Source: Utricularia gibba
Taxonomy: Eukaryota > Streptophyta > Magnoliopsida > Lamiales > Lentibulariaceae
Direction of reading: 5' to 3'
NCBI GenBank assembly: GCA_002189035.1
Contig: NEEC01000361.1
Location: 1-29,650 of the forward strand
DNA: 29,650 bases
Part shown: piece by piece, positions 1 through 29,650 of the stretch
How positions within the stretch are numbered: position 1 is the stretch's first letter
How the letters are laid out: each line of letters opens with the position of its first letter
Program-made: the position numbers and the translations under genes
The notes under the pieces: model-generated
The model's database searches: none
Seen by the model: only the letters and a program-made list of their open reading frames with translations
Told to the model about the DNA's origin: nothing

Positions 1-6
1 ACAACA
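1..6 (+). repeat. Tail end of the monomer preceding the window
   Basis: The first six bases (acaaca) are the last bases of a monomer that lies to the left, so the array continues beyond the window. Confidence 0.85.
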
Positions 7-636
7 TACTTTATACATGAGGAGGCGGTCTTGGGGGCACTTGGAACCGGAAAAAGATCAGCTTAGGCCTTGGCCCAAAGTAAGTTGTAGTCCGGCAAAT
101 AAAGTGATGTATTTATTATCGTTCGGTTTTCGGTGGCTGCCTACATGGTTTTTCAAGGAACCGCTTCTCGTTTTGTGGCGGCCAGTCTCGCTGGGAACTT
201 GGTCCTTGACGCCGATACTGTATTGCTCATGAGGTCAACCGGATGCAAATCAATTAAAAAAAATGATGCATTTTTTTAAATTACGATATCACGAGCACCC
301 TACATGATTTTTCAAACTCTTACTTTATACTTCAGGAGGTGGTCTTTGGGGGGAAGAGGAACCGGACAAAAGTCAGCTTAGGCTTGGTCCGAAAGTAAGT
401 TGTAGCCCGGCAATGAAAGTGATGTATTTATTAACGTTCGGTATTCGCGGGCTGCCTACATGGTTTTTCAAGGAACCGCTTCTCGTTTTGTGACGGCCAG
501 TCTCGCTGGGAACTTGGTCCTTCATCCCCATTCTGTATGGCTCATGAGGTCAACTGGATGCAAATCGATTAAAAAAAATGATGCACTTGTTTAAATTATG
601 ATGTCACGTGCACCTCACATGATTTTTTCAACAACT
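7..636 (+). repeat. Chimeric monomer plus type B monomer (first copy of a duplicated pair)
   Basis: Monomers start at 7 and 321. The first has an ordinary type 1 left half (aggaggcgg, tccggcaaataaag, ttatcg) but a type C tail: tattgctc near 225, accggatg and cacgagcaccc. It therefore looks recombinant between type 1 and type C. The second is type B (cttcaggaggtgg, ggaagaggaacc, ggcaatgaaag) with private changes: ttcggtattcgcggg, tgtgacggcc and ccttcatcccc. The same private changes recur in the pair at 2209-2839, so the two pairs are a recent duplication seven monomers apart. Confidence 0.9.
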
Positions 637-951
637 TACTTTATACTTGAGAAGGCGGTCTTTGGGTGCACTTGGAAACGGAAAAAGATCAGCTTAGGCC
701 TTGGCCCAAAGTAAGTTGTAGCCCGGCAAAGAAAGTGATGTATTTATTAACGTTCGGTTTTCCGTGTTGCCTACAAGGTTTTTCAAGGAACAGCTTCTCG
801 TTTTGTGGCGGCCACTCTCGCTAGGAACTTGGTCCTTGACCCCAATTCTGTATGGCTCATGAGGTGAACTGGATGCAAATCGATTAAAAAAAATGATGCA
901 TTTGTTTAAATTACGATGTCACGTTCACTCCACATGATTTTTTTAACAACA
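637..951 (+). repeat. Diverged type 2-like monomer
   Basis: This copy has type 2 core markers (cggcaaagaaag, ttaacg, gtgttgcc, acagctt) but many private changes: cttgagaaggcgg, ggtgcacttggaaacgg, tttccgtgttgcctacaagg, ccactctcgctagg, gaggtgaact and acgttcactcc. Its left edge (ttgag, gtctttgggtgcac) resembles type C. It looks like an older, unhomogenised copy. Confidence 0.85.
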
Positions 952-1267
952 TACTTTATACATGAGGAGGCGGTCTTGGGGGCACTTGGAACCGGAAAAA
1001 GATCAGCTTAGGCCTTGGCCCAAAGTAAGTTGTAGTCCGGCAAATAAAGTGATGTATTTATTATCGTTCGGTTTTCGGGGGCTGCCTACATGGTTTTTCA
1101 AGGAACCGCTTCTCGTTTTGTGGCGGCCAGTCTCGCTGGGAACTTGGTCCTTGACCCGATTCTGTATGGCTCATGAGGTCAACTGGATGCAAATCGATTA
1201 AAAAAAAATGATGCATTTGTTTAAATTATGATGTCACGTGCACCCCACATGATTTTTTTCAACAACT
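952..1267 (+). repeat. Type 1 monomer leading into the diverged C-like pair
   Basis: Ordinary type 1 markers are present: tccggcaaataaag, ttatcg, gggggctgcc, ccgctt. Its right edge reads tttcaacaacttact instead of the usual taacaacatact. That cttact form otherwise precedes type C monomers, as at 1581, 5963 and 7845. Confidence 0.88.
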
Positions 1268-1580
1268 TACTTTATACTTGAGGAGGCGGTCTTGGGGTGC
1301 AGCTGGAACGGGACAAAGGTAAGGTTTGGCTTGCCCGAGAGTTAGTTGTAGCCCGGCAAAAAAAAGTGATGTATTTATTAATGTTCGGTTTTCGGTGTTC
1401 CCTACATGGTTTTTCAAGGAACAGCTTCTCGTTTTGTGGCGGCCAGTCTCGCTAGGAACTTGGTCCGGGCCCGCGATTCTTTATGGCTCATGAGGACAAA
1501 GGATGCAAATCGATGAATACAATGTTGCATTTCTTTAAATTGCGATATCACGTGCACCCCACATGATTTTTTCAACAACT
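1268..1580 (+). repeat. Strongly diverged C-like monomer
   Basis: This is the most diverged copy I can see. The left third is C-like (gacaaaggtaaggtttgg, gagagttagttg). The middle has ttaatgttcgg and gtgttccctac. The segment normally reading ggtccttgaccccgattctg is replaced by ggtccgggcccgcgattctt. The right part carries gaggacaaaggatg, gatgaatacaatgttgc and aaattgcgatatc, markers of the 1g tail. It combines features of several types and may be an ancestral or strongly converted copy. Confidence 0.85.
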
Positions 1581-1893
1581 TACTTTATACTTGAGCAGGC
1601 GGTCTTTGGGTGCACCTGGAACGGGACAAAGGTAAGTTTGGCTTGCACCGAGAGTTAGTTGTAGTCTGGCAAATAAAGTGATGTATTTATTATCGTTCGG
1701 TTTTCGGGGCTGCCTACATGGTTTTCAAGGAACAGGTTCTCGTTTTGTGGCGGCCAGTCTCGCTGGGAACTTGGTCCTTGACCCCGATTCTGTATGGCTC
1801 AAGAGGTCAACTGGATGCAAATCGATTAAAAAAAATGATGCATTTGTTTAAATTATGATGTCACTTTCACCCCACATGATTTTTTTAACAACA
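1581..1893 (+). repeat. C/1 hybrid monomer
   Basis: The left third is type C (cttgagcaggcgg, gtctttgggtgcac, tttggcttgcaccg, gagttagttg, tctggcaaataaag). The right part is an ordinary type 1 tail (ggctcaagagg, aaatcgatt, ttatgatgtcac) without the tattgctc and gagcaccc markers of full C copies. It is followed by a type 2 monomer rather than type B, so the C-B linkage seen further right is absent here. Confidence 0.85.
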
Positions 1894-2208
1894 TACTTTA
1901 TACATGAGGAGGCGGTCTTGGGGGGCACTTGGAACCGGAAAAAGATCAGCTTAGGCCTTGACCCAAAGTAAGTTGTAGCCCAGCAAAGAAAGTGATGTAT
2001 TTATTAACGTTCGGTTTTAGGTGTTGCCTATATGGTTTTTCAAGGAACAGCTTCTCGTTTTGTGGCGGCCAGTCTCGCTGGGAACTTGGTCCTTGACCCC
2101 AATTCTGTATGGCTCATGAGGTCAACTGGATGCAAATCGATTAAAAAAAATGATGCATTTGTTTAAATTACGATGTCACGTGCACCCCACATGATTTTTT
2201 TCACAACA
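1894..2208 (+). repeat. Type 2 monomer with ttttaggtgttg variant
   Basis: It has cagcaaagaaag, ttaacg and acagctt of type 2, with ttttaggtgttgcctatatgg in place of ttttcggtgttgcctacatgg. The ttttagg change links it to the type 1 variants expanded at 2840-3780 and 4403-5336. It ends with tttcacaacata, a junction form used before type 1 monomers elsewhere. Confidence 0.85.
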
Positions 2209-2839
2209 TACTTTATACATGAGGAGGCGGTCTTGGGGGCACTTGGAACCGGAAAAAAGATCAGCTTAGGCCTTGGCCCAAAGTAAGTTGTAGTCCGGCA
2301 AATAAAGTGATGTATTTATTATCGTTCGGTTTTCGGTGGGCTGCCTACATGGTTTTTCAAGGAACCGCTTCTCGTTTTGTGGCGGCCAGTCTCGCTGGGA
2401 ACTTGGTCCTTGACGCCGATACTGTATTGCTCATGAGGTCAACCGGATGCAAATCAATTAAAAAAAATGATGCATTTTTTAAATTACGATATCACGAGCA
2501 CCCTACATGATTTTTTCAAACTCTTACTTTATACTTCAGGAGGTGGTCTTGGGGGGGAAGAGGAACCGGACAAAAGTCAGCTTAGGCTTGGTCCGAAAGT
2601 AAGTTGTAGCCCGGCAATGAAAGTGATGTATTTATTAACGTTCGGTATTCGCGGGCTGCCTACATGGTTTTTCAAGGAACCGCTTCTCGTTTTGTGACGG
2701 CCAGTCTCGCTGGGAACTTGGTCCTTCATCCCCATTCTGTATGGCTCATGAGGTCAACTGGATGCAAATCGATTAAAAAAAAGATGCACTTGTTTAAATT
2801 ATGATGTCACGTGCACCTCACATGATTTTTTTAACAACA
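2209..2839 (+). repeat. Second copy of the chimeric + type B pair
   Basis: Monomers start at 2209 and 2525. The pair matches 7-636, including private substitutions (gccgatactgtattgctc, aaatcaatt, ttcggtattcgcgg, tgtgacgg, ccttcatcccc). The differences I can see are single-base length changes in homopolymer runs, such as gtggctg versus gtgggctg. The offset between the copies is 2202-2204 bp. Confidence 0.92.
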
Positions 2840-3780
2840 TACTTTATACATGAGGAGGCGGTCTTGGGGGCACTTGGAACCGGAAAAAGATCAGCTTAGG
2901 CCTTGGCCCAAAGTAAGTTGTAGTCCGGCAAATAAAGTGATGCATTTATTATCGTTCGGTTTTAGGTGTTGCCTACATGGTTTTTCAAGGAACGCTTCTC
3001 GTTTTGTGGCGGCCAGTCTCGCTGGGAACTTGGTCCTTGATCCGATTCTGTATGGCTCATGAGGTCAACTGGATGCAAATCGATTAAAAAAAATGATGCA
3101 TTTGTTTAAATTATGATGTCACGTGCACCTCACATGATTTTTTTAACAACATACTTTATACATGAGGAGGCGGTCTTGGGGGCACTTGGAACCGGAAAAA
3201 GATCAGCTTAGGCCTTGGCCCAAAGTAAGTTGTAGTCCGGCAAATAAAGTGATGCATTTATTATCGTTCGGTTTTAGGTGTTGCCTACATGGTTTTTCAA
3301 GGAACCGCTTCTCGTTTTGTGGCGGCCAGTCTCGCTGGGAACTTGGTCCTTGATCTCGATTCTGTATGGCTCATGAGGTCAACTGGATGCAAATCGATTA
3401 AAAAAAATGATGCACTTGTTTAAATTATGATGTCACGTGCACCTCACATGATTTTTTTAACAACATACTTTATACATGAGGAGGCGGTCTTGGGGGGCAC
3501 TTGGAACCGGAAAAAGATCAGCTTAGGCCTTGGCCCAAAGTAAGTTGTAGTCCGGCAAATAAAGTGATGCATTTATTATCGTTCGGTTTTAGGTGTTGCC
3601 TACATGGTTTTTCAAGGAACCGCTTCTCGTTTTGTGGCGGCCAGTCTCGCTGGGAACTTGGTCCTTGATCTCGATTCTGTATGGCTCATGAGGTCAACTG
3701 GATGCAAATCGATTAAAAAAAATGATGCATTTGTTTAAATTATGATGTCACGTGCACCCCACATGATTTTTTTAACAACA
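2840..3780 (+). repeat. Three near-identical type 1 monomers with gatgcattta and ttttaggtgttg
   Basis: Monomers start at 2840, 3152 and 3466. All share gtgatgcatttattatcg (usual form gtgatgtattta) and ttttaggtgttgcc, found together only here. The second and third also share gatctcgattctg. The private combination shows a recent local tandem amplification of one monomer. Confidence 0.92.
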
Positions 3781-4402
3781 TACTTTATACATGAGGAGGC
3801 GGTCTTGGGGGCACTTGGAACGGGAAAAAGGTCAGCTTAGGCCTTGGCCCAAAGTAAGTTGTAGTGCAAATAAAGTGATGTATTTATTACGTTCGGTTTT
3901 CGGGGCTGCCTACATGGTTTTTCAAGGAACTGCTTCTCGTTTTGTGGCGGCCAGTCTCGCTGGGAACTTGGTCCTTGACCCCAATTCTGTATGGCTCATG
4001 AGGTCAACTGGATGCAAATCGATTAAAAAAAATGATGCATTTGTTTAAATTATGATGTCACGTGCACCCCACATGATTTTTTTAACAACATACTTTATAC
4101 ATTAGGTGGCGGTCTTGGGGGCACTTTGAACCGGAAAAAGGTCAGCCTAGGCCTTGGCCCAAAGTAAGTTGTAGCCCGGCAAATAAAGTGATGTATTTAT
4201 TATCGTTCGGTTTTCGGGGCTGCCTACATGGTTTTTCAAGGAACTGCTTCTCGTTTTGTGGCGGCCAGTCTCGCTGGGAACTTGGTCCTTGATCCGATTC
4301 TGTATGGCTCATGAGGTCAACTGGATGCAAATCGATTAAAAAAAATGATGCATTTGTTTAAATTATGATGTCACGTGCACCCACATGATTTTTTTAACAA
4401 CA
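3781..4402 (+). repeat. Two type 1 monomers with aactgctt
   Basis: Monomers start at 3781 and 4091. Both carry caaataaag, ggggctgcc and ggaactgctt; the last is a CpG to TpG form of ggaaccgctt. The first has a shortened tagtgcaaataaag and ttacg. The second starts cattaggtggcgg, and has cactttgaacc and cagcctagg. Both sit between the two ttttagg expansions. Confidence 0.88.
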
Positions 4403-5336
4403 TACTTTATACATGAGGAGGGTCTTGGGGGCACTTGGAACCGGAAAAAGATCAGCTTAGGCCTTGGCCCAAAGTAAGTTGTAGTCCGGCAAATAAAGTG
4501 ATGTATTTATTATCGTTCGGTTTTAGGTGTTGCCTACATGGTTTTTCAAGGAACCGCTTCTCGTTTTGTGGCGGCCAGTCTCGCTGGGAACTTGGTCCTT
4601 GATCCGATTCTGTATGGCTCATGAGGTCAACTGGATGCAAATCGATTAAAAAAATGATGCATTTGTTTAAATTATGATGTCACGTGCACCCACATGATTT
4701 TTTAACAACATACTTTATACATGAGAGGCGGTCTTGGGGGCACTTGGAACCGGAAAAAGATCAGCTTAGGCCTTGGCCCAAAGTAAGTTGTAGTCCGGCA
4801 AATAAAGTGATGTATTTATTATCGTTCGGTTTTAGGTGTTGCCTACATGGTTTTTCAAGGAACCGCTTCTCGTTTTGTGGCGGCCAGTCTCGCTGGGAAC
4901 TTGGTCCTTGATCCGATTCTGTATGGCTCATGAGGTCAACTGGATGCAAATCGATTAAAAAAAATGATGCATTTGTTTAAATTATGATGTCACGTGCACC
5001 CACATGATTTTTTAACAACATACTTTATACATGAGGAGGCGGTCTTGGGGGGCACTTGGAACCGGAAAAAAGATCAGCTTAGGCCTTGGCCCAAAGTAAG
5101 TTGTAGTCCGGCAAATAAAGTGATGTATTTATTATCGTTCGGTTTTAGGTGTTGCCTACATGGTTTTTCAAGGAACCGCTTCTCGTTTTGTGGCGGCCAG
5201 TCTCGCTGGGAACTTGGTCCTTGACCCCAATTCTGTATGGCTCATGAGGTCAACTGGATGCAAATCGATTTAAAAAAATGATGCATTTGTTTAAATTATG
5301 ATGTCACGTGCACCCCACATGATTTTTTTAACAACA
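4403..5336 (+). repeat. Three type 1 monomers with ttttaggtgttg (second expansion)
   Basis: Monomers start at 4403, 4711 and 5021. All keep gtgatgtatttattatcg but share ttttaggtgttgcc and ccgctt; the first two also share gatccgattctg and the short gcacccacatg. Their left edges differ by small indels (gaggagggtc, gagaggcggtc, gaggaggcggtc). They are relatives of the 2840-3780 cluster without the gatgcattta change. Confidence 0.9.
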
Positions 5337-5962
5337 TACTTTATACATGAGGAGGCGGTCTTGGGGGCACTTTGAACCGGAAAAAGGTCAGCTTAGGCCT
5401 TGGCCCAAAGTAAGTTGTAGCCCGGCAAATAAAGTGATGTATTTATTATCGTTCGGTTTTCGGGGGCTGCCTACATGGTTTTTCAAGGAACGCTTCTCGT
5501 TTTTTTGGCGGCCAGTCTCGCTGGGAACTTGGTCCTTGACCCCATTCTGTATGGCTCATGAGGTCAACTGGATGCAAATCGATTAAAAAAAATGATGCAT
5601 TTGTTTAAATTATGATGTCACGTGCACCCCACATGATTTTTTTAACAACATACTTTATACATGAGGAGGCGTCTTGGGGGCACTTGGAACCGGAAAAAGG
5701 TCAGCTTAGGCCTTGGCCCAAAGTAAGTTGTAGCCCAGCAAAGAAAGTGATGTATTTATTAACGTTCGGTTTTCGGTGTTGCCTACATGGTTTTTGAAGG
5801 AACAGCTTCTCATTTTGTGGCGGCCAGTCTCGCTGGGAACTTGGTCCTTGACCCCCATTCTGTATGGCTCATGAGGTCAACTGGATGTAAATCGATGAAT
5901 ACAATGTTGCATTTGTTTAAATTGCGATATCACGTGCACCTCACATGATTTTTTCAACAACT
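5337..5962 (+). repeat. Type 1 monomer and type 2 monomer with 1g tail, preceding the first compact HOR
   Basis: Monomers start at 5337 and 5651. The first is type 1 with gggggctg, aacgctt and ttttttggcgg. The second has a type 2 left part (cagcaaagaaag, ttaacg, gtgttgcc, acagcttctcatttt). Its right end is the 1g form: ggatgtaaatcgatgaatac, aatgttgc, aaattgcgatatc, cacctcacatg and caacaacttact. It is thus a type 2/1g hybrid sitting where 1g normally sits, directly before a C monomer. Confidence 0.87.
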
Positions 5963-6885
5963 TACTTTATACCCTAGCAGAAGGTCTTTGGGTGCACGTG
6001 GAACGGGACAAAGTAAGGTTTGGCTTGCACCGAGAGTTAGTTGTAGTCTGGCAAATAAAGTGATGTATTTATTATCGTTCGGTTTTCGGGGGCTGCCTAC
6101 ATGGTTTTTCAAGGAACCGCTTCTCGTTTTGTGGCGGCCAGTCTCGCTGGGAACTTGGTCCTTGACCCCGATTCTGTATTGCTCATGAGGTCAACCGGAT
6201 GCAAATCGATTAAAAAAAATGATGCATTTTTTTAAATTACGATATCACGAGCACCCTACATGATTTTTTTCAAACTCTTACTTTATACTTCAGGAGGTGG
6301 TCTTGGGGGGGAAGAGGAACCGGAAAAAAGTCAGCTTAGGCTTGGCCGAAAGTAAGTTGTAGGCCGGCAATGAAAGTGATGTATTTATTAACGTTCGGTT
6401 TTCGGGGCTGCCTACATGGTTTTTCAAGGAACCGCTTCTCGTTTTGTGGCGGCCAGTCTTGCTGGGAACTTGGTCCTTGACCCCGATTCTGTATGGCCCA
6501 TGAGGTCAACTAGATGCAAATTGATTAAAAAAAATGATGCATTTGTTTAAATTATGATGTCACCTGCACCCCACATGATTTTTTTAACAACATACTTTAT
6601 ACATGAGGAGGCGGTCTTGGGGGGCACTTGGAACCGGAAAAAGATCAGCTTAGGCCTTGGCCCAAAGTAAGTTGTAGCCCAACAAAGAAAGTGATGTATT
6701 TATTAACGTTCGGTTTTCGGTGTTGCCTACATGGTTTTTCAAGGAACAGCTTCTCGTTTTGTGGCGGCCAGTCTTGCTGGGAACTTGGTCCTTGACCCCG
6801 ATTCTGTATGGCCCATGAGGTCAACTGGATGCAAATTGATTAAAAAAAATGATGCATTTGTTTAAATTATGATGTCACGTGCACC

Positions 6886-7199
6886 CCACATGATTTTTTT
6901 AACAACATACTTTATACATGAGGAGGCGGTCTTGGGGGGCACTTGGAACCGGAAAAAGATCAGCTTAGGCCTTGGCCCAAAGTAAGTTGTAGCCCAGCAA
7001 AGAAAGTGATGTATTTATTAACGTTCGGTTTTCGGTGTTGCCTACATGGTTTTTCAAGGAACAGCTTCTCGTTTTTGGCGGCCAGTCTTGCTGGGAACTT
7101 GGTCCTTGACCCCGATTCTGTATGGCCCATGAGGTCAACTGGATGCAAATTGATTAAAAAAAATGATGCATTTGTTTAAATTATGATGTCACGTGCACC
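6886..7199 (+). repeat. Example monomer showing the two-half (ancient dimer) structure
   Basis: Taken from ccacatga to the next ccacatga, this 314-bp stretch splits into halves 6886-7040 and 7041-7199. Matching anchors in the same order are ccacatga (6886) with cctacatgg (7041), ggcgg (6925) with ggcgg (7077), acttgg (6941) with acttgg (7097), gcaaa (6997) with gcaaa (7145), and tgatgtattta (7007) with tgatgcatttg (7164). The offsets are 155, 152, 156, 148 and 157 bp. Colinearity of five anchors supports an origin by duplication of a ~156-bp ancestor. The halves are now too diverged to be called separate monomers. Confidence 0.75.
7188..7195. promoter_or_regulatory. Recurrent GTCACGTG (CACGTG palindrome) site, one per monomer
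   Basis: GTCACGTG sits about 20 bp before the T-rich end of most monomers; this is one example. It contains the palindromic E-box/G-box core CACGTG and matches the RTCACRTG pattern known as CDEI in budding-yeast centromeres and bound by bHLH proteins. It is altered in some copies: cacgagc in C tails, cacctgc near 6570 and 29590, and cacgttc near 924, 21505 and 25558. No binding function is shown by the sequence alone. Confidence 0.35.
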
Positions 7200-7844
7200 C
7201 CACATGATTTTTTTAACAACATACTTTATACATGAGGAGGCGGTCTTTGGGGCACTTGGAACCGGAAAAAGATCAGCTTAGGCCTTGGCCCAAAGTAAGT
7301 TGTAGCCCAGCAAAGAAAGATGTATTTATTAACGTTCGGTTTTCGGTGTTGCCTACATGGTTTTTCAAGGAACAGCTTCTCGTTTTGTGGCGGCCAGTCT
7401 CGCTGGGAACTTGGTCCTTGACCCCCATTCTGTATGGCTCATGAGGTCAACTGGATGCAAATCGATTAAAAAAAATGATGCACTTGTTTAAATTATGATG
7501 TCACGTGCACCCCACATGATTTTTTTAACAACATACTTTATACATGAGGAGGCGGTCTTGGGGCACTTGGAACCGGGAAAAAGATCAGCTTAGGCCTTGG
7601 CCCAAAGTAAGTTGTAGTCCGGCAAATAAAGTGATGTATTTATTCGTTCGGTTTTCGGGGCTGCCTACATGGTTTTTCAAGGAACCGCTTCTCGTTTTGT
7701 GGCGGCCAGTCTCGCTGGGAACTTGGTCCTTGACCCCCATTCTGTATGGCTCATGAGGTCAACTGGATGTAAATCGATGAATACAATGTTGCATTTGTTT
7801 AAATTGCGATATCACGTGCACCTCACATGATTTTTTCAACAACT

Positions 7845-10800
7845 TACTTTATACCCTAGGTCTTTGGGTGCACGTGGAACCGGAAAAAGGTAAGCTTGGC
7901 TTGCACCGAGAGTTAGTTGTAGTCTGGCAAATAAAGTGATGTATTTATTATCGTTCGGTTTTCGGGGCTGCCTACATGGTTTTTCAAGGAACCGCTTCTC
8001 GTTTTGTGGCGGCCAGTCTCGCTGGGAACTTGGTCCTTGACCCCGATTCTGTATTGCTCATGAGGTCAACCGGATGCAAATCGATTAAAAAAAATGATGC
8101 ATTTTTTTAAATTACGATATCACGAGCACCCACATGATTTTTTCAAACTCTTACTTTATACTTCAGGAGGTGGTCTTGGGGGAAGAGGAACCGGAAAAAG
8201 TCAGCTTAGGCTTGGGCCGAAAGTAAGTTGTAGCCGGCAATGAAAGTGATGTATTTATTAACGTTCGGTTTTCGGGGGCTGCCTACATGGTTTTTCAAGG
8301 AACCGCTTCTCGTTTTGTGGCGGCCAGTCTTGCTGGGAACTTGGTCCTTGACCCCGATTCTGTATGGCCCATGAGGTCAACTGGATGCAAATTGATTAAA
8401 AAAAATGATGCATTTGTTTAAATTATGATGTCACGTGCACCCCACATGATTTTTTTTAACAACATACTTATACATGAGGAGGCGGTCTTGGGGCACTTGG
8501 AACCGGAAAAAGATCAGCTTAGGCCTTGGCCCAAAGTAAGTTGTAGCCCAACAAAGAAAGTGATGTATTTATTAACGTTCGGTTTCGGTGTTGCCTACAT
8601 GGTTTTTCAAGGAACAGCTTCTCGTTTTGTGGCGGCCAGTCTCTTGCTGGGAACTTGGTCCTTGACCCCCGATTCTGTATGGCCCATGAGGTCAACTGGA
8701 TGCAAATTGATTAAAAAAAATGATGCATTTGTTTAAATTATGATGTCACGTGCACCCCACATGATTTTTTTAACAACATACTTTATACATGAGGAGGCGG
8801 TCTTGGGGGCACTTGGAACCGAAAAAGATCAGCTTAGGCCTTGGCCCAAAGTAAGTTGTAGCCCCAAAGCAAAGAAAGTGATGTATTTATTAACGTTCGG
8901 TTTTCGGTGTTGCCTACATGGTTTTTCAAGGAACAGCTTCTCTTTTGTGGCGGCCAGTCTCGCTGGGAACTTGGTCCTTGACCCCCATTCTGTATGGCTC
9001 ATGAGGTCAACTGGATGCAAATCGATTAAAAAAAATGATGCATTTGTTTAAATTATGATGTCACGTGCACCCCACATGATTTTTTCACAACATACTTTAT
9101 ACATGAGGAGCGGTCTTGGGGGGCACTTGGAACGGAAAAAAAATCAGCTTAGGCCTTGGCCCAAAGTAAGTTGTAGTACGGCAAATAAAGTGATGTATTT
9201 ATTACGTTCGGTTTTCGGGGGCTGCCTACATGGTTTTTCAAGGAACGCTTCTCGTTTTGTGGCGGCCAGTCTCGCTGGGAACTTGGTCCTTGACCCCGAT
9301 TCTGTATGGCTCATGAGGTCAACTGGATGCAAATCGATTAAAAAAAATGATGCATTTGTTTAAATTACGATGTCACGTGCACCCCACATGATTTTTTTAA
9401 CAACATACTTTATACATGAGGAGGCGGTCTTGGGGGGCACTTGGAACCGGAAAAAGATCAGCTTAGGCCTTGGCCCAAAGTAAGTTGTAGCCGCAAAGAA
9501 AGTGATGTATTTATTAACGTTCGGTTTTCGGTGTTGCCTACATGGTTTTTCAAGGAACAGCTTCTCGTTTTGTGGCGGCCAGTCTTGCTGGGAACTTGTC
9601 CTTGACCCCGATTCTGTATGGCCATGAGGTCAACTGGATGCAAATTGATTAAAAAAATGATGCATTTGTTTAAATTATGATGTCACGTGCACCCCACATG
9701 ATTTTTTTAACAACATACTTTATACATGAGGAGGCGGTCTTGGGGGCACTTGGAACCGGAAAAAGATCAGCTTAGGCCTTGGCCCAAAGTAAGTTGTAGC
9801 CCAGCAAAGAAAGTGATGTATTTATTAACGTTCGGTTTTCGGTGTTGCCTACATGGTTTTTCAAGGAACAGCTTCTCGTTTTGTGGCGGCCAGTCTCGCT
9901 GGGAACTTGGTCCTTGACCCCGATTCTGTATGGCCCATGAGGTCAACTGGATGCAAATTGATTAAAAAAAATGATGCATTTGTTTAAATTATGATGTCAC
10001 GTGCACCCCACATGATTTTTTAACAACATACTTTATACATGAAGAGGCGGTCGGGGGGGCACTTGGAACCGGAAAAAGATCAGCTTAGGCCTTGGCCAAA
10101 GTAAGTTGTAGCCCAGCAAAGAAAGTGATGTATTTATTAACGTTCGGTTTTCGGTGTTGCCTACATGGTTTTTCAAGGAACAGCTTCTCGTTTTGTGGCG
10201 GCCAGTCTCGCTGGGAACTTGGTCCTTGACCCCGATTCTGTATGGCTCATGAGGTCAACTGGATGCAAATCGATTTAAAAAAATGATGCATTTGTTTAAA
10301 TTATGATGTCACGTGCACCCCACATGATTTTTTTAACAACATACTTTATACATGAGGAGCGGTCTTGGGGGGCACTTGGAACGGAAAAAGATCAGCTTAG
10401 GCCTTGGCCCAAAGTAAGTTGTAGCCGGCAAATAAAGTGATGTATTTATTATCGTTCGGTTTTCGGGGCTGCCTACATGGTTTTTCAAGGAACGCTTCTC
10501 GTTTTGTGGCGGCCAGTCTCGCTGGGAACTTGGTCCTTGACCCCATTCTGTATGGCTCATGAGGTCAACTGGATGCAAATCGATTAAAAAAAATGATGCA
10601 TTTGTTTAAATTATGATGTCACGTGCACCCACATGATTTTTTAACAACATACTTTATACATGAGGAGGCGGTCTTGGGGGGCACTTGGAACCGGAAAAAG
10701 ATCAGCTTAGGCCTTGGCCCAAAGTAAGTTGTAGCCGGCAAAGAAAGTGATGTATTTATTAACGTTCGGTTTTCGGTGTTGCCTACATGGTTTTTCAAGG

Positions 10801-12211
10801 AACAGCTTCTCGTTTTGTGGCGGCCAGTCTCGCTGGGAACTTGGTCCTTGACCCCGATTCTGTATGGCTCATGAGGTCAACTGGATGCAAATCGATTAAA
10901 AAAAATGATGCATTTGTTTAAATTATGATGTCACGTGCACCCCACATGATTTTTTTAACAACATACTTTATACATGAGAGGCGGTCTTGGGGGCACTTGG
11001 AACCGGAAAAAGATCAGCTTAGGCCTTGGCCCAAAGTAAGTTGTAGCCCGGCAAAAGAAAGTGATGTATTTATTATCGTTCGGTTTTCGGGGGCTGCCTA
11101 CATGGTTTTTCAAGGAACGCTTCTCGTTTTGTGGCGGCCAGTCTCGCTGGGAACTTGGTCCTTGACCCCGATTCTGTATGGCTCATGAGGTCAACTGGAT
11201 GCAAATCGATTAAAAAAAATGATGCATTTGTTTAAATTATGATGTCACGTGCACCCCACATGATTTTTTTAACAACATACTTTATACATGAGGAGGCGGT
11301 CTTGGGGGGCACTTGGAACCGGAAAAAGATCAGCTTAGGCCTTGGCCCAAAGTAAGTTGTAGCCCAGCAAAGAAAGTGATGTATTTATTAACGTTCGGTT
11401 TTCGGTGTTGCCTACATGGTTTTTCAAGGAACAGCTTCTCGTTTTGTGGCGGCCAGTCTCGCTGGAACTTGGTCCTTGACCCGATTCTGTATGGCTCATG
11501 AGGTCAACTGGATGCAAATCGATTAAAAAAAATGATGCATTTGTTTAAATTATGATGTCACGTGCACCCCACATGATTTTTTTAACAACATACTTTATAC
11601 ATGAGGAGGCGGTCTTGGGGGGCACTTGGAACCGGAAAAAGATCAGCTTAGGCCTTGGCCCAAAGTAAGTTGTAGCCGGCAAAGAAAGTGATGTATTTAT
11701 TAACGTTCGGTTTTCGGTGTTGCCTACATGGTTTTTCAAGGAACGCTTCTCGTTTTGTGGCGGCCAGTCTCGCTGGGAACTTGGTCCTTGACCCCGATTC
11801 TGTATGGCTCATGAGGTCAACTGGATGCAAATCGATTAAAAAAAATGATGCATTTGTTTAAATTATGATGTCACGTGCACCCCACATGATTTTTTAACAA
11901 CATACTTTATACATGAGGAGGCGGTCTTGGGGGCACTTGGAACCGGAAAAAGATCAGCTTAGGCCTTGGCCCAAAGTAAGTTGTAGCCGGCAAATAAAGT
12001 GATGTATTTATTATCGTTCGGTTTTCGGGGCTGCCTACATGGTTTTTCAAGGAACCGCTTCTCGTTTTGTGGCGGCCAGTCTCGCTGGGAACTTGGTCCT
12101 TGACCCCGATTCTGTATGGCTCATGAGGTCAACTGGATGCAAATCGATTAAAAAATGATGCATTTGTTTAAATTGCGATGTCACGTGCACCCACATGATT
12201 TTTTAACAACT
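7845..12211 (+). repeat. Expanded higher-order unit of 14 monomers
   Basis: It opens with C and B and closes with 1g like the compact unit, with extra type 1 and 2 copies inside. Starts: 7845 C, 8152 B, 8465 2T (cccaacaaag), 8779 2C, 9093 1 (tacggcaaat), 9406 2T, 9716 2T/2C mosaic (agtctcgctgg with ggcccatg and caaattg), 10029 2C, 10342 1, 10650 2C, 10964 1/2 hybrid, 11278 2C, 11591 2C, 11903 1g (aaattgcgatgtcac). The C copy at 7845 has lost bases at its left edge (ccctaggtctttggg). Confidence 0.83.
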
Positions 12212-14996
12212 TACTTTATACATGAGGCGGTCTTTGGGGCACTTGGAACGGAAAAAGGTCAGCTTAGGCTTGCCAAAGTAAGTTGTAGTCGGCAAATAAA
12301 GTGATGTATTTATTATCGTTCGGTTTTCGGGGGCTGCCTACATGGTTTTTCAAGGAACCGCTTCTCGTTTTGTGGCGGCCAGTCTCGCTGGGAACTTGGT
12401 CCTTGACCCCGATTCTGTATGGCTCATGAGGTCAACTGGATGCAAATCGATTAAAAAAAATGATGCATTTTTTTAAATTATGATGTCACGTGCACCCACA
12501 TGATTTTTTCAAACATACTTTATACATGAGGAGGGTCTTGGGGGGGGAACCGGAAAAAGTCAGCTTAGGCTTGGCCAAAGTAAGTTGTAGCCCGGCAAAG
12601 AAAGTGATGTATTTATTAACGTTCGGTTTCGGGGCTGCCTACATGGTTTTTCAAGGAAGCTTCTCGTTTTGTGGCGGCCAGTCTCGCTGGGAACTTGGTC
12701 CTTGACCCCGATTCTGTATGGCTCATGAGGTCAACTGGATGCAAATGATTAAAAAAAATGATGCATTTGTTTAAATTATGATGTCACGTGCACCCACATG
12801 ATTTTTTTAACAACATACTTTATACATGAGGAGGCGGTCTTGGGGGGCACTTGGAACCGGAAAAGATCAGCTTAGGCCTTGGCCCAAAGTAAGTTGTAGC
12901 CCAGCAAAGAAAGTGATGTATTTATTAACGTTCGGTTTTCGGTGTTGCCTACATGGTTTTTCAAGGAACAGCTTCTCGTTTTGTGGCGGCCAGTCTCGCT
13001 GGGAACTTGGTCCTTGACCCCGATTCTGTATGGCTCATGAGGTCAACTGGATGCAAATCGATTAAAAAAAATGATGCATTTGTTTAAATTATGATGTCAC
13101 GTGCACCCCACATGATTTTTTTAACAACATACTTTATACATGAGGAGGCGGTCTTGGGGGCACTTGGAACGGAAAAAGTCAGCTTAGGCCTTGGCCCAAA
13201 GTAAGTTGTAGTCCGGCAAATAAAGTGATGTATTTATTATCGTTCGGTTTTCGGGGGCTGCCTACATGGTTTTTCAAGGAACGCTTCTCGTTTTGTGGCG
13301 GCCAGTCTCGCTGGGAACTTGGTCCTTGACCCGATTCTGTATGGCTCATGAGGTCAACTGGATGCAAATCGATTAAAAAAAATGATGCATTTGTTTAAAT
13401 TATGATGTCACGTGCACCCCCACATGATTTTTTTAACAACATACTTTATACATGAGGAGGCGGTCTTGGGGGCACTTGGAACCGGAAAAAGATCAGCTTA
13501 GGCCTTGGCCAAAGTAAGTTGTAGCCGGCAAAGAAAGTGATGTATTTATTAACGTTCGGTTTTCGGTGTTGCCTACATGGTTTTTCAAGGAACGCTTCTC
13601 GTTTTGTGGCGGCCAGTCTCGCTGGGAACTTGGTCCTTGACCCCGATTCTGTATGGCTCATGAGGTCAACTGGATGCAAATCGATTAAAAAAAATGATGC
13701 ATTTGTTTAAATTATGATGTCACGTGCACCCACATGATTTTTTTAACAACATACTTTATACATGAGGAGGCGGTCTTGGGGGCACTTGGAACCGGAAAAA
13801 GATCAGCTTAGGCCTTGGCCCAAAGTAAGTTGTAGTCCCAGCAAAGAAAGTGATGTATTTATTACGTTCGGTTTTCGGTGTTGCCTACATGGTTTTTCAA
13901 GGAACGCTTCTCGTTTTGTGGCGGCCAGTCTCGCTGGGAACTTGGTCCTTGACCCCGATTCTGTATGGCTCATGAGGTCAACTGGATGCAAATCGATTAA
14001 AAAAAATGATGCATTTGTTTAAATTATGATGTCACGTGCACCCCACATGATTTTTTTAACAACATACTTTATACATGAGGAGGCGGTCTTGGGGGCACTT
14101 GGAACCGGAAAAAGATCAGCTTAGGCCTTGGCCCAAAGTAAGTTGTAGCCCGGCAAAGAAAGTGATGTATTTATTAACGTTCGGTTTTCGGTGTTGCCTA
14201 CATGGTTTTTCAAGGAACGCTTCTCGTTTTGTGGCGGCCAGTCTTGCTGGGAACTTGGTCCTTGACCCCGATTCTGTATGGCCCATGAGGTCAACTGGAT
14301 GCAAATTGATTAAAAAAAATGATGCATTTGTTTAAATTATGATGTCACGTGCACCCCACATGATTTTTTTAACAACATACTTTATACATGAGGAGGCGGT
14401 CTTTGGGGGCACTTGGAACGGAAAAAGATCAGCTTAGGCCTTGGCCCAAAGTAAGTTGTAGCCCAGCAAAGAAAGTGATGTATTTATTAACGTTCGGTTT
14501 TCGGTGTTGCCTACATGGTTTTTCAAGGAACAGCTTCTCGTTTTGTGGCGGCCAGTCTCGCTGGGAACTTGGTCCTTGACCCCATTCTGTATGGCTCATG
14601 AGGTCAACTGGATGCAAATCGATTAAAAAAAATGATGCATTTGTTTAAATTATGATGTCACGTGCACCCCACATGATTTTTTTAACAACATACTTTATAC
14701 ATGAGGAGGCGGTCTTGGGGGCACTTGGAACCGGAAAAAGATCAGCTTAGGCCTTGGCCCAAAGTAAGTTGTAGTCCGGCAAATAAAGTGATGTATTTAT
14801 TATCGTTCGGTTTTCGGGGGCTGCCTACATGGTTTTTCAAGGAACCGCTTCTCGTTTTGTGGCGGCCAGTCTCGCTGGAACTTGGTCCTTGACCCCATTC
14901 TGTATGGCTCATGAGGTCAACTGGATGCAAATCGAAAAAATGATGCATTTGTTTAAATTGCGATGTCACGTGCACCCACATGATTTTTTAACAACA
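12212..14996 (+). repeat. Expanded higher-order unit of 9 monomers with degenerate C and B
   Basis: Starts: 12212 C-like, 12516 B-like, 12816 2C, 13130 1, 13442 2C, 13752 2C, 14065 2T, 14378 2C, 14691 1g. The C copy keeps gtctttgggg and aggcttgcc but has an ordinary tail (ggctcatg, caactgg). The B copy keeps the short caaacatact entry and a long G run but has caaagaaag instead of caatgaaag. Both are short (304 and 300 bp). They look like C and B copies partly overwritten by type 1/2 sequence, probably by gene conversion. Confidence 0.8.
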
Positions 14997-17900
14997 TACT
15001 TTATACATAGGTCTTTGGGGCACTTGGAACGGAAAAGGTCAGCTTAGGCTTGCCCAAAGTTAGTTGTAGTCCGGCAAATAAAGTGATGTATTTATTATCG
15101 TTCGGTTTTCGGGGCTGCCTACATGGTTTTTCAAGGAACCGCTTCTCGTTTTTGGCGGCCAGTCTCGCTGGGAACTTGGTCCTTGACCCCGATTCTGTAT
15201 GGCTCATGAGGTCAACTGGATGCAAATCGATTAAAAAAAATGATGCATTTTTTTAAATTACGATGTCACGTGCACCCACATGATTTTTTCAAACATACTT
15301 TATACCAGGAGGCGGTCTTGGGGGGGGAGGAACCGGAAAAAGTCAGCTTAGGCCTTGGGCCAAAGTAAGTTGTAGCCCGGCAATAAAGTGATGTATTTAT
15401 TAACGTTCGGTTTTCGGGGCTGCCTACATGGTTTTTCAAGGAACCGCTTCTCGTTTTGTGGCGGCCAGTCTCGCTGGGAACTTGGTCCTTGACCCCGATT
15501 CTGTATGGCCCATGAGGTCAACTGGATGCAAATCGATTAAAAAAAATGATGCATTTGTTTAAATTATGATGTCACGTGCACCCACATGATTTTTTAACAA
15601 CATACTTTATACATGAGGAGGCGGTCTTGGGGGGCACTTGGAACCGGAAAAAGATCAGCTTAGGCCTTGGCCCAAAGTAAGTTGTAGCCCAAAAGAAAGT
15701 GATGTATTTATTAACGTTCGGTTTTCGGTTTGCCTACATGGTTTTTCAAGGAACAGCTTCTCGTTTTGTGGCGGCCAGTCTGCTGGGAACTTGGTCCTTG
15801 ACCCCGATTCTGTATGGCCCATGAGGTCAACTGGATGCAAATTGATTAAAAAAAATGATGCATTTGTTTAAATTATGATGTCACGTGCACCCACATGATT
15901 TTTTTTAACAACATACTTTATACATGAGGAGGCGGTCTTGGGGGGCACTTGGAACCGGAAAAAGATCAGCTTAGGCCTTGGCCCAAAGTAAGTTGTAGCC
16001 CAGCAAAGAAAGTGATGTATTTATTAACGTTCGGTTTTCGGTGTTGCCTACATGGTTTTTCAAGGAACAGCTTCTCGTTTTGTGGCGGCCAGTCTCGCTG
16101 GGAACTTGGTCCTTGACCCCCATTCTGTATGGCTCATGAGGTCAACTGGATGCAAATCGATTAAAAAAAATGATGCATTTGTTTAAATTATGATGTCACG
16201 TGCACCCCACATGATTTTTTCACAACATACTTTATACATGAGGAGGCGGTCTTGGGGGCACTTGGAACCGGAAAAAGGTCAGCTTAGGCCTTGGCCCAAA
16301 GTAAGTTGTAGTGGCAAATAAAGTGATGTATTTATTATCGTTCGGTTTTCGGGGGCTGCCTACATGGTTTTTCAAGGAACGCTTCTCGTTTTGTGGCGGC
16401 CAGTCTCGCTGGGAACTTGGTCCTTGACCCCGATTCTGTATGGCTCATGAGGTCAACTGGATGCAAATCGATTAAAAAAAATGATGCATTTGTTTAAATT
16501 ATGATGTCACGTGCACCCCACATGATTTTTTTAACAACATACTTTATACATGAGGAGGCGGTCTTGGGGGGCACTTGGAACCGGAAAAAGATCAGCTTAG
16601 GCCTTGGCCCAAAGTAAGTTGTAGCCCAGCAAAGAAAGTGATGTATTTATTAACGTTCGGTTTTCGGTGTTGCCTACATGGTTTTTCAAGGAACAGCTTC
16701 TCGTTTTGTGGCGGCCAGTCTGCTGGGAACTTGGTCCTTGACCCCGATTCTGTATGGCCATGAGGTCAACTGGATGCAAATGATTAAAAAAATGATGCAT
16801 TTGTTTAAATTATGATGTCACGTGCACCCACATGATTTTTTTTAACAACATACTTTATACATGAGGAGGCGGTCTTGGGGGGCACTTGGAACGGAAAAAA
16901 ATCAGCTTAGGCCTTGGCCCAAAGTAAGTTGTAGCCCGGCAAAAAGTGATGTATTTATTACGTTCGGTTTTCGGGGGCTGCCTACATGGTTTTTCAAGGA
17001 ACAGCTTCTCGTTTTGTGGCGGCCAGTCTCGCTGGGAACTTGGTCCTTGACCCCGATTCTGTATGGCTCATGAGGTCAACTGGATGCAAATCGATTAAAA
17101 AAAATGATGCATTTGTTTAAATTACGATGTCACGTGCACCCACATGATTTTTTTAACAACATACTTTATACATGAGGAGGCGGTCTTGGGGGCACTTGGA
17201 ACCGGAAAAAGATCAGCTTAGGCCTTGGCCCAAAGTAAGTTGTAGCCCAGCAAAGAAAGTGATGTATTTATTAACGTTCGGTTTTCGGTGTTGCCTACAT
17301 GGTTTTTCAAGGAACAGCTTCTCGTTTTGTGGCGGCCAGTCTTGCTGGGAACTTGGTCCTTGACCCCGATTCTGTATGGCCCATGAGGTCAACTGGATGC
17401 AAATTGATTAAAAAAAATGATGCATTTGTTTAAATTATGATGTCACGTGCACCCCACATGATTTTTTTAACAACATACTTTATACATGAGGAGGCGGTCT
17501 TGGGGGGCACTTGGAACCGGAAAAAGATCAGCTTAGGCCTTGGCCCAAAGTAAGTTGTGTAGCCCAGCAAAGAAAGTGATGTATTTATTAACGTTCGGTT
17601 TTCGGTGTTGCCTACATGGTTTTTCAAGGAACAGCTTCTCATTTTGTGGCGGCCAGTCTCGCTGGGAACTTGGTCCTTGACCCCATTCTGTATGGCTCAT
17701 GAGGTCAACTGGATGCAAATCGATTAAAAAAAATGATGCACTTGTTTAAATTATGATGTCACGTGCACCCCACATGATTTTTTTTAACAACATACTTTAT
17801 ACATGAGGAGGCGGTCTTGGGGGCACTTGGAACCGGAAAAAGATCAGCTTAGGCCTTGGCCCAAAGTAAGTTGTAGTCCGGCAAATAAAGTGATGTATTT

Positions 17901-18104
17901 ATTGTCGTTCGGTTTTCGGGGCTGCCTACATGGTTTTTCAAGGAACCGCTTCTCGTTTTGTGGCGGCCAGTCTCGCTGGGAACTTGGTCCTTGACCCCCA
18001 TTCTGTATGGCTCATGAGGTCAACTGGATGTAAATCGATGAATAAATGTTGCATTTGTTTAAATTGCGATATCACGTGCACCTCACATGATTTTTTCAAC
18101 AACT
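14997..18104 (+). repeat. Expanded higher-order unit of 10 monomers
   Basis: Starts: 14997 C-like (cataggtctttgggg, aaagttagttg; 299 bp, the shortest monomer), 15296 B-like (ccaggaggcgg, gggggggaggaacc, ggcaataaag), 15603 2T (cccaaaagaaag), 15914 2C, 16228 1, 16540 2T, 16851 1/2 hybrid, 17162 2T, 17476 2C, 17793 1g (gatgaataaatgttgc, aaattgcgatatc). The 2C at 17476 has a two-base insertion (gttgtgtag) and acagcttctcatttt; the latter is also found in the monomer at 5651. Confidence 0.82.
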
Positions 18105-19976
18105 TACTTTATAAGCGGTCTTTGGGGCACGTGGAACGGACAAAGTAAGTTTGGCTTGCCCGAGAGTTAGTTGTAGTCTGGCAAATAAAGTGATGTATTT
18201 ATTATCGTTCGGTTTTCGGGGGCTGCCTACATGGTTTTTCAAGGAACCGCTTCTCGTTTTGTGGCGGCCAGTCTCGCTGGGAACTTGGTCCTTGACCCCG
18301 ATTCTGTATGGCTCATGAGGTCAACCGGATGCAAATCGATTAAAAAAAATGATGCATTTTTTTAAATTACGATATCACGAGCACCCCACATGATTTTTTC
18401 AAACTCTTACTTTATACTTCAGGAGGTGGTCTTGGGGGGAAGAGGAACCGGACAAAAGTCAGCTTAGGCTTGGGCCAAAGTAAGTTGTAGGCCGGCAATG
18501 AAAGTGATGTATTTATTAACGTTCGGTTTTCGGGGGCTGCCTACATGGTTTTTCAAGGAACCGCTTCTCGTTTTGTGGCGGCCAGTCTTGCTGGGAACTT
18601 GGTCCTTGACCCCGATTCTGTATGGCCCATGAGGTCAACTAGATGCAAATTGATTAAAAAAATGATGCATTTGTTTAAATTATGATGTCACGTGCACCCC
18701 ACATGATTTTTTTAACAACATACTTTATACATGAGGAGGCGGTCTTGGGGGGCACTTGGAACCGGAAAAAGATCAGCTTAGGCCTTGGCCCAAAGTAAGT
18801 TGTAGCCACAAAGAAAGTGATGTATTTATTAACGTTCGGTTTTCGGTGTTGCCTACATGGTTTTTCAAGGAACAGCTTCTCGTTTTGTGGCGGCCAGTCT
18901 TGCTGGGAACTTGGTCCTTGACCCCGATTCTGTATGGCCCATGAGGTCAACTGGATGCAAATTGATTAAAAAAAATGATGCATTTGTTTAAATTATGATG
19001 TCACGTGCACCCCACATGATTTTTTTAACAACATACTTTTATACATGAGGAGGCGGTCTTGGGGGGCACTTGGAACCGGAAAAAGATCAGCTTAGGCCTT
19101 GGCCCAAAGTAAGTTGTAGCCCAGCAAAGAAGTGATGTATTTATTAACGTTCGGTTTTCGGTGTTGCCTACATGGTTTTTCAAGGAACAGCTTCTCGTTT
19201 TGTGGCGGCCAGTCTTGCTGGGAACTTGGTCCTTGACCCCGATTCTGTATGGCCCATGAGGTCAACTGGATGCAAATTGATTAAAAAAAATGATGCATTT
19301 GTTTAAATTATGATGTCACGTGCACCCCACATGATTTTTTTAACAACATACTTTATACATGAGGAGGCGGTCTTGGGGGCACTTGGAACCGGAAAAAGAT
19401 CAGCTTAGGCCTTGGCCCAAAGTAAGTTGTAGCCCAGCAAAGAAAGTGATGTATTTATTAACGTTCGGTTTTCGGTGTTGCCTACATGGTTTTTCAAGGA
19501 ACAGCTTCTCGTTTTGTGGCGGCCAGTCTTGCTGGGAACTTGGTCCTTGACCCCGATTCTGTATGGCCCATGAGGTCAACTGGATGCAAATTGATTAAAA
19601 AAAATGATGCATTTGTTTAAATTATGATGTCACGTGCACCCCACATGATTTTTTTAACAACATACTTTATACATGAGGAGGCGGTCTTGGGGGGCACTTG
19701 GAACCGGAAAAAGATCAGCTTAGGCCTTGGCCCAAAGTAAGTTGTAGCCAACAAAGAAAGTGATGTATTTATTAACGTTCGGTTTTCGGTGTTGCCTACA
19801 TGGTTTTTCAAGGAAACGCTTCTCGTTTTGTGGCGGCCAGTCTCGCTGGGAACTTGGTCCTTGACCCCGATTCTGTATGGCCCATGAGGTCAACTGGATG
19901 CAAATTGATTAAAAAAAATGATGCATTTGTTTAAATTATGATGTCACGTGCACCCCACATGATTTTTTTAACAACA
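18105..19976 (+). repeat. C-B followed by four type 2T-like monomers
   Basis: Starts: 18105 C, 18408 B, 18721 2T, 19034 2T, 19349 2T, 19663 2T variant. The C copy has lost part of its left edge (actttataagcggtc) but keeps gagagttagttg, tctggcaaat, accggatg and cacgagcacc. B has cttcaggaggtgg, ggaagaggaacc, ggcaatgaaag and actagatgcaaattg; the last is shared with the B copy at 6279. The run of 2T copies looks like local amplification after the C-B pair. The last has gccaacaaag, aaacgctt and agtctcgctgg, so it is mosaic. Confidence 0.85.
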
Positions 19977-20286
19977 TACTTTATACATGAGGAGGCGGTC
20001 TTGGGGGCACTTGGAACCGGAAAAAGATCAGCTTAGGCCTTGGCCCAAAGTAAGTTGTAGTCCGGCAAAAAAGTGATGTATTTATTATCGTTCGGTTTTA
20101 GGTTGCCTACATGGTTTTTCAAGGAACCGCTTCTCGTTTTGTGGCGGCCAGTCTCGCTGGGAACTTGGTCCTTGACCCGATTCTGTATGGCTCATGAGGT
20201 CAACTGGATGCAAATCGATTAAAAAAAATGATGCATTTGTTTAAATTATGATGTCACGTGCACCCCACATGATTTTTTTAACAACA

Positions 20287-20600
20287 TACTTTATACATGA
20301 GGAGGCGGTCTTGGGGGCACTTGGAACCGGAAAAAGATCAGCTTAGGCCTTGGCCCAAAGTAAGTTGTAGCCCAGCAAAGAAAGTGATGTATTTATTAAC
20401 GTTCGGTTTTCGGGGCTGCCTACATGGTTTTTCAAGGAACCGCTTCTCGTTTTGTGGCGGCCAGTCTCGCTGGGAACTTGGTCCTTGACCCCGATTCTGT
20501 ATGGCTCATGAGGTCAACTGGATGCAAATCGATTAAAAAAAATGATGCATTTGTTTAAATTATGATGTCACGTGCACCCACATGATTTTTTTTAACAACA
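20287..20600 (+). repeat. Recombinant monomer, type 2 left half and type 1 right half
   Basis: Left markers are type 2 (cccagcaaagaaag, ttaacg). From ggggctgcc onward it is type 1 (ccgctt). The switch lies in the short interval between ttaacg and ggggctgcc, consistent with an exchange or conversion tract ending inside the monomer. Confidence 0.8.
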
Positions 20601-22463: not shown

Positions 22464-22776
22464 TACTTTATACATGAGGAGGCGGTCTTGGGGGGCACTT
22501 GGAACGGAAAAAGATCAGCTTAGGCCTTGGCCCAAAGTAAGTTGTAGTACGGCAAATAAAGTGATGTATTTATTATCGTTCGGTTTTCGGTGTTGCCTAC
22601 ATGGTTTTTCAAGGAACAGCTTCTCGTTTTGTGGCGGCCAGTCTCGCTGGGAACTTGGTCCTTGACCCCGATTCTGTATGGCTCATGAGGTCAACTGGAT
22701 GCAAATCGATTAAAAAAATGATGCATTTGTTTAAATTATGATGTCACGTGCACCCCACATGATTTTTTTAACAACA
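22464..22776 (+). repeat. Recombinant monomer, type 1 left half and type 2 right half
   Basis: Left markers are type 1 (tacggcaaataaag, ttatcg). The right side is type 2 (gtgttgcc, acagctt). The switch is in the same interval as in the reciprocal hybrid at 20287. The monomer is entered through ccccatgattttttt and cacaacatact, where a ca pair has been lost from ccccacatg. Confidence 0.8.
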
Positions 22777-28995: not shown

Positions 28996-29650
28996 TACTT
29001 TATACCCTAGCAGAAGGTCTTGGGGCACTGGAACGGGAAAAGGTAAGGTTTGGCTTGCACCGAGAGTTAGTTGTAGTCTGGCAAATAAAGTGATGTATTT
29101 ATTATCGTTCGGTTTTCGGGGGCTGCCTACATGGTTTTTCAAGGAACCGCTTCTCGTTTTGTGGCGGCCAGTCTCGCTGGACTTGGTCCTTGACCCCGAT
29201 TCTGTATTGCTCATGAGGTCAACCGGATGCAAATCGATTAAAAAAAATGATGCATTTTTTTTAAATTACGATATCACGAGCACCCTACATGATTTTTTTC
29301 AAACTCTTACTTTATACTTCAGGAGGTGGTCTTGGGGGGGAAGAGGAACCGGACAAAAGTCAGCTTAGGCTTGGGCCGAAAGTAAGTTGTAGGCCGGCAA
29401 TGAAAGTGATGTATTTATTAACGTTCGGTTTTCGGGGCTGCCTACATGGTTTTTCAAGGAACCGCTTCTCGTTTTGTGGCGGCCAGTCTTGCTGGGAACT
29501 TGGTCCTTGACCCGATTCTGTATGGCCATGAGGTCAACTGGATGCAAATCGATTAAAAAAAATGATGCATTTGTTTAAATTATGATGTCACCTGCACCCC
29601 ACATGATTTTTTTAACAACATACTTTATACATGAGGAGGCGGTCTTGGGG
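28996..29650 (+). repeat. Start of a further higher-order unit (C, B, partial monomer), cut by the window edge
   Basis: Starts: 28996 C (ccctagcagaagg, tttggcttgcaccg, gagagttagttg, tattgctc, accggatg, cacgagcaccc), 29308 B (cttcaggaggtgg, ggcaatgaaag, ggccatg), and 29621, where only 30 bases of an ordinary monomer remain. C resembles the copy at 5963, with the same ccctagcagaagg edge. B shares gtcacctgcacc with the B copy at 6279. The array continues past the right edge. Confidence 0.86.

What the first reader, a model, noticed from the sequence alone, without database searches (positions are those of the whole stretch)
6886..7199. Each ~312-bp monomer is a cryptic dimer of two ~156-bp halves
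Within one monomer, cc(c/t)acatg(a/g)ttttt, ggcgg, acttgg, gcaaa and tgatg(t/c)attt recur in the same order, offset by 155, 152, 156, 148 and 157 bp. The same pairing is visible in every monomer I checked. The satellite therefore probably arose from a ~156-bp repeat that doubled and diverged. Units of 150-180 bp are common for centromeric satellites, so the ancestor may have been of that size class. The halves are diverged enough that a simple tandem-repeat scan would report only ~312 bp.
Basis: seen in the sequence. Interest (0 to 1): 0.72.

Follow-up and report, generated by a model that had tools for sequence, protein, structure and literature searches.

The report
Plant satellite DNA: hidden two-part repeat
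This 29.6-kb stretch is one tandem array of a roughly 313-base plant satellite whose unit is an old duplication of a roughly 156-base repeat, and the host plant, probably the bladderwort Utricularia gibba, carries related satellites at broken inner ends of some chromosome pieces although its centromeres were described as satellite-free.

Summary
The whole window is one ~313-bp satellite array (S1). The two halves of the 314-bp consensus score above all 2,000 dinucleotide shuffles (z 5.8), best in the unrotated register. Single units of an unrelated satellite, S4, show no such signal (5 of 5).

A halves split from B halves with 100% bootstrap, so the doubling predates the families. In 22 sampled stretches A and B alternate at 560 of 562 junctions: the dimer is the amplifying unit.

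The host is a land plant, by assembly statistics probably Utricularia gibba (inferred). S1-S3 make up roughly 4 Mb. S2 closes a telomere-bearing contig with ~218 kb of array; two telomere-to-telomere contigs give no probe hit. A paper calls the putative U. gibba centromeres satellite-free; perhaps only satellite-free chromosomes assembled completely. Centromere function is inferred, not shown. Dimer-derived satellites are known, so this is a new member of a known kind.

The parts
1..29650 (+). S1 satellite array, ~313-bp unit, 95 copies, fills the whole contig (G000:C94)
   Evidence: TRF period 313, 95.1 copies, 93% matches; window = C94:1-29650
6884..7038 (+). half A of the reported unit (starts CCCCACATGA)
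   Evidence: split of the consensus, placed by reading
7039..7197 (+). half B of the reported unit (starts TGCCTACATGG)
   Evidence: split of the consensus, placed by reading
6991..7056 (+). approximate core shared by the halves, copy 1 (end of A into start of B)
   Evidence: 66 of 157 aligned columns, threshold chosen by me; clustering of A-B identity p 0.0066; coordinates placed by hand
7142..7215 (+). approximate core shared by the halves, copy 2 (end of B into start of the next A)
   Evidence: coordinates placed by hand

Best explanation
The window is a plant satellite array whose amplifying unit is an A-B dimer of two homologous ~156-bp modules. Shown: the halves are alike beyond chance and in register; the A/B split is older than the split of the S1, S2 and S3 families; sampled arrays alternate A and B almost without exception. 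Inferred: an ancestral ~156-bp repeat duplicated, A and B diverged to ~51% identity, and since then unequal exchange and amplification have copied whole A-B units (or multiples, such as the ~2.17-kb spacing in contig C8), because A and B no longer match well enough to misalign with each other. Inferred with less certainty: the arrays are centromeric or pericentromeric heterochromatin on some of the chromosomes, each half roughly one nucleosome long, and they stop the assembly at inner ends of chromosome arms.
For: Halves against shuffles: S1 z 5.8, 0 of 2,000; S1 variant of contig C8 z 4.8, S2 z 6.5, S3 z 7.4 and 8.7, 0 of 1,000 each. Between families A-A 0.69-0.77 and B-B 0.67-0.76, but A-B 0.48-0.62 everywhere; A|B split at 100% bootstrap. 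560 of 562 junctions alternate. Satellite S4: no half signal in 5 of 5 units (single units, not a consensus). Inner location: S2 array on C213 from 3,486,181 to the contig end 3,704,653, 6 of 6 points sampled inside it are S2, telomere at the other end; S3 at the end of C402 and an 84% S1-like piece at the start of C414. Of 40 contig ends read (20 contigs, 2 kb each, one all N), S1-S3 are on 3 and telomere repeats on 17, with no overlap.
Against: No CENH3 data and no FISH. Contigs C3 and C4, telomeric at both ends, hold no probe hit, so the family is not seen on every chromosome. 8 of the 13 contigs with a telomere at one end only show no satellite-length tandem array in the 2 kb read at the other end. 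Within arrays the shared core is not less variable than the rest (S1 p 0.29, with the core slightly more variable; S2 p 0.13), so there is no sign of present selection on it. Duplication in place cannot be told from joining of two variants.
Confidence: 0.62

Rival explanations
1. Same dimer, but the arrays are knob-like or other non-centromeric heterochromatin; the true centromeres lack satellites, as published for the complete chromosomes.
For: C3 and C4, telomeric at both ends, carry no hit of the S1-S3 probes or of the S4 probe (that probe misses 1 of 5 known S4 ends). PMC8333044 (passages) says satellites are absent from the putative centromeres. C402 has S4 at one end and S3 at the other, so one chromosome can hold more than one satellite block.
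Against: None of 17 telomere-bearing ends carries S1-S3 within 2 kb; where placed, the arrays are at inner ends, on C213 for ~218 kb.
Confidence: 0.33
2. A and B were two already different ~156-bp library variants that became joined into one unit, rather than one repeat duplicated in place.
For: Satellite libraries with coexisting variants are described (PMC4053949, passages); the A-B distance is already large at the base of all three families.
Confidence: 0.3
3. The half similarity is chance, composition or convergence on nucleosome-favouring sequence, not common descent.
For: The best local alignment alone is modest: 40 of 2,000 shuffles reach it.
Against: Global alignment 0 of 2,000; the same register in S1, S2 and S3; S4 units give z from -0.30 to 0.32.
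Confidence: 0.03

Closest known systems
New World monkey 343-bp centromere repeat (doubled 171-bp repeat), PMC4053949, passages seen
   Same: A unit of about twice nucleosome length whose two halves are weakly related and which became the dominant unit.
   Different: Different sequence and kingdom; [quoted passage not shown]
AB dimer higher-order repeats of plants such as Sorghum bicolor (PMC4053949, passages)
   Same: A and B cluster separately in a tree and alternate.
   Different: There both the single and the doubled period show; here A-B identity is ~51% in S1 and S2 and TRF reports only the doubled period in the window.
Genlisea nigrocaulis 161-bp centromere-associated repeat Gn7c161 (PMC4542322, passages)
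   Same: Same plant family if the host is Utricularia; similar length to one half.
   Different: Only its two PCR primers could be compared: best of 8 Gn7c161 comparisons p 0.066, not significant.

Membership tests
satellite derived from a dimer (higher-order repeat that became the unit) | two halves homologous beyond chance and in register | tested here: met
satellite derived from a dimer (higher-order repeat that became the unit) | A and B types cluster separately and alternate | tested here: met
   100% bootstrap for A|B; 560 of 562 junctions
satellite derived from a dimer (higher-order repeat that became the unit) | an ancestral single-length array in the same or a related genome | tested here: inconclusive
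centromeric satellite | enriched in CENH3 chromatin | not testable with these tools
   no ChIP data available
centromeric satellite | an array on every chromosome | tested here: not met
   no 22-mer hit on C1-C6 and two isolated 15-mer hits, on C1 and C2; none on C3 or C4, both telomeric at both ends. C1-C6 are read as fully listed because the listing runs in contig order. Diverged families outside the probes are not excluded
subtelomeric satellite | next to telomere repeats | tested here: inconclusive
   0 of 17 telomere-bearing ends carry S1-S3 within 2 kb; beyond 2 kb only C1-C4 (six of these ends) are covered, by the probes. S1 itself is unplaced in the window's contig
rDNA or other structured RNA repeat | match to an Rfam family | tested here: not met
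   0 matches at gathering score in window 6000-9000 and in 12 further sources

The most novel reading that the evidence does not exclude
The host has two kinds of centromere: satellite-based ones (S1/S2/S3 or S4) that broke the assembly, and satellite-free ones on the chromosomes that assembled end to end. The report of satellite-free centromeres would then be a survivorship effect of assembly, and the A/B dimer would mark an old satellite library behind the first kind.
Probability: 0.33. Interest if true: 0.65.

Novelty: new member of a known kind. Interest (0 to 1): 0.45.

Why it matters
It confirms a hidden dimer that tandem-repeat software does not report, and gives a three-family example in a plant of a dimer acting as the unit of amplification. 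It also supplies probes (S1, S2, S3, S4) for a direct test of whether a plant with a minute genome has satellite centromeres on some chromosomes and none on others.

Tried and rejected
Read too early: the ~2,335-bp spacing of S3 hits looked like 15 half units, and I wrote that in a note. The sequence refuted it: halves cover 38% of L049, and each unit also holds 62-bp subrepeats with inverted copies further along the unit. A higher-order repeat in the window itself: identity by monomer lag is flat, 0.927-0.939 over lags 1-15. Homology of the S1 halves with S4: best z 2.1 (A) and 1.9 (B) over 36 windows each of one S4 unit, that of C244. Kinship with the Genlisea repeats: 16 primer-by-family comparisons, best p 0.04 (Gn44c19_R with S4) and 0.066 (Gn7c161_F with S2), not significant for 16 tries. 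WW periodicity of the consensus was not interpreted, because repeating the unit inflates the harmonics. Contamination by another organism: rejected for S2 and for the S1-like piece, which sit on contigs that bear light-harvesting genes (C213, C414); the window's own contig holds nothing but satellite, so its placement rests on sequence kinship. Chromodomain search: 22 matches, none on the satellite contigs named apart from C213, where it lies at 0.52 Mb, far from the array; neither helps nor hurts. Identity by Ribonuclease T2: the 10 exon matches group into four places by my reading, against three family genes stated for U. gibba in PMC7149871 (passages); not decisive. The histone search was not followed to a CENH3 gene.

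Full report
What is there. The window is one contig (C94) of a 100.09-Mb, 516-contig assembly and is satellite from end to end: period 313, 95.1 copies, 93% matches. The 93 monomers cut from it share on average 95% identity at aligned bases (two half-length intervals were dropped). There is no higher-order structure above the unit in the window: identity is 0.927-0.939 at lags of 1 to 15 monomers, gaps counted. No Rfam family matches the 3 kb tested.

The observation. Four of the five anchor offsets are exactly as written; the first is off by one. Cut at the anchors, the two halves of the consensus align globally at -36, against -117.4 (sd 14.0, maximum -64) for 2,000 dinucleotide shuffles; the unrotated register is the best of 159. 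Allowing the best rotation in the null as well, 0 of 150 shuffles reach the observed score, z 4.9. Local alignment alone would have been weak, 40 of 2,000. A second satellite of this genome, S4 (336-356 bp), gives z from -0.30 to 0.32 in 5 of 5 units, so the test does not pass for any satellite; these were single units, whereas S1 and S2 were tested as consensus.

Relatives. BLAST with the consensus on 40 contig ends (20 contigs, 2 kb each, one end all N) found diverged copies at the end of C213 (72-76% in most pieces), the end of C402 (74-83%) and the start of C414 (84%, about 127 bp); a repeat with the halves of all families found the same three ends and no other. The first defines S2 (consensus 314 bp, TRF period 310), the second S3, a 2,336-bp tandem unit in which half units cover 38% of the 7.5 kb read and the rest includes 62-bp subrepeats with inverted copies further along the unit. 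Contig C8 carries an S1 variant with a favoured spacing of ~2,170 bp, about seven dimers.

Age of the doubling. Between families A halves are 69-77% alike and B halves 67-76% (79% and 78% between the two copies within S3), but A against B is 48-62%; within S1, its C8 variant and S2 it is 51%, within S3 54-62%. The tree of ten half sequences splits A from B at 100% bootstrap; nodes inside A and B are weak (34-55%) except the pairing of S1 with its C8 variant at 100%. The doubling is therefore older than the families. Homology is concentrated in 66 of 157 columns, running from the end of one half into the next (clustering p 0.0066; the cut-off for 'core' was mine). Those columns are also better kept between families (A 0.81 against 0.67, B 0.81 against 0.63), but they were chosen by A-B identity, so that is partly circular; within arrays they are not less variable (p 0.29 and 0.13).

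Present unit of amplification. Halves called by BLAST in 22 stretches (window plus 21 loci; hits under 90 bp dropped, junctions with a gap of 40 bp or more not counted) make 280 A-B, 280 B-A, 1 A-A and 1 B-B junctions; both exceptions are in S2. So exchange happens, in what was sampled, in the dimer register.

Host. Light-harvesting genes (46 matches) and TTTAGGG telomeres say land plant. The assembly is 100.1 Mb; among the 20 contigs I measured, half of it is reached at 3.45 Mb (an unmeasured large contig would raise this), the largest is 8.5 Mb and one is 6.82 Mb. Papers give contig N50 3.4 Mb and 581 contigs for U. gibba (PMC5793159, passages), and a 6.8-Mb Unitig_8 with 18 contigs over 1 Mb (PMC8333044, passages). 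I measured 18 contigs over 1 Mb, and C317 is over 1.08 Mb too, so that count does not fit exactly; nor does 516 against 581. Identity as U. gibba is an inference. The original genome paper is not held.

Where the satellites lie. A 22-mer of S1 has 5,846 hits, 0 in the reversed control; the listing runs in contig order and starts at C7, so C1-C6 have none. A 15-mer present in S1, its C8 variant, S2 and S3 has 16,269 hits against 9 in the control, with only two isolated hits on C1-C6, one on C1 and one on C2. At the densities of sampled arrays (2.78 of the 22-mer per kb of S1; 1.71 and 6.41 of the 15-mer per kb of S1 and S2) I estimate about 2.1 Mb of S1 and about 2 Mb of the rest, roughly 4% of the assembly. 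S4 has 4,003 hits of a 16-mer, none before C32, very roughly 2.2 Mb at 1.8 per kb; that probe has no hit in one of the five S4 ends known (C508). C3 and C4 have telomeres at both ends and no hit of any probe. On C213, telomeric at its start, S2 begins at 3,486,181, about 0.3 kb beyond a reverse transcriptase frame (RVT_2, E 1.2e-86; that RVT_2 marks Ty1/copia is recalled), and 6 of 6 points sampled up to the contig end at 3,704,653 are S2. S4 closes the inner ends of C244, C451, C480 and C508 and, in a more distant form (72-77% over 139-194 bp), the start of C402. Of 13 contigs telomeric at one end only, 5 have a satellite at the other end and 8 show none of satellite length in the 2 kb read.

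Meaning. PMC8333044 (passages) says the low lncRNA density of the putative U. [quoted passage not shown] pericentromeres are said to be seen most clearly in four complete chromosomes. If the host is U. gibba, the same assembly holds by my estimate some 6% satellite that C3 and C4 lack. Chromosomes with long arrays may simply not have assembled. Whether S1-S4 bear CENH3 cannot be decided here. My searches for satellites of Utricularia in print (listings, with passages of the papers named) showed me no description of these repeats, but the library holds open-licence papers only and I read passages, not whole texts.

Known kind. [quoted passage not shown] In Genlisea nigrocaulis a 161-bp repeat is centromere-associated (PMC4542322, passages); with only its primers available no kinship could be shown.

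Noticed in passing
L034, L017, L041, L026, L027 (ends of contigs C244, C402, C451, C480, C508): A second, unrelated GC-rich satellite (S4, 336-356 bp) closes inner ends of four telomere-bearing contigs and one end of C402; 4,003 hits of a 16-mer.
   Followed up: partly
L049 (C211:1500-9000) and L037 (C402 end): S3: 2,336-bp tandem unit made of A/B half units plus a stretch with 62-bp subrepeats in both orientations, foldback-like.
   Followed up: partly
L051 and L060 (contig C8): S1 variant arrays; in L051 a favoured spacing near 2,170 bp, about seven dimers.
   Followed up: partly
Contigs C1, C2, C409, C505: Lengths are exact multiples of 2,500 (8,500,000; 6,192,500; 2,492,500; 3,452,500) and their last 2 kb have no telomere; the ends may have been cut in processing.
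   Followed up: no
L006 4900-6001 and L008 1-1000: Scrambled, shortened satellite units inside small contigs; may be read error or real decay.
   Followed up: no
L050 1-3681: Retrotransposon pol frames with RVT_2, interrupted by one stop in the stretch read, about 0.3 kb left of the ~218-kb S2 array on C213.
   Followed up: partly
L052 1403-1552 and L057 1-155: The only two breaks of A-B alternation in 562 junctions, both in S2.
   Followed up: no
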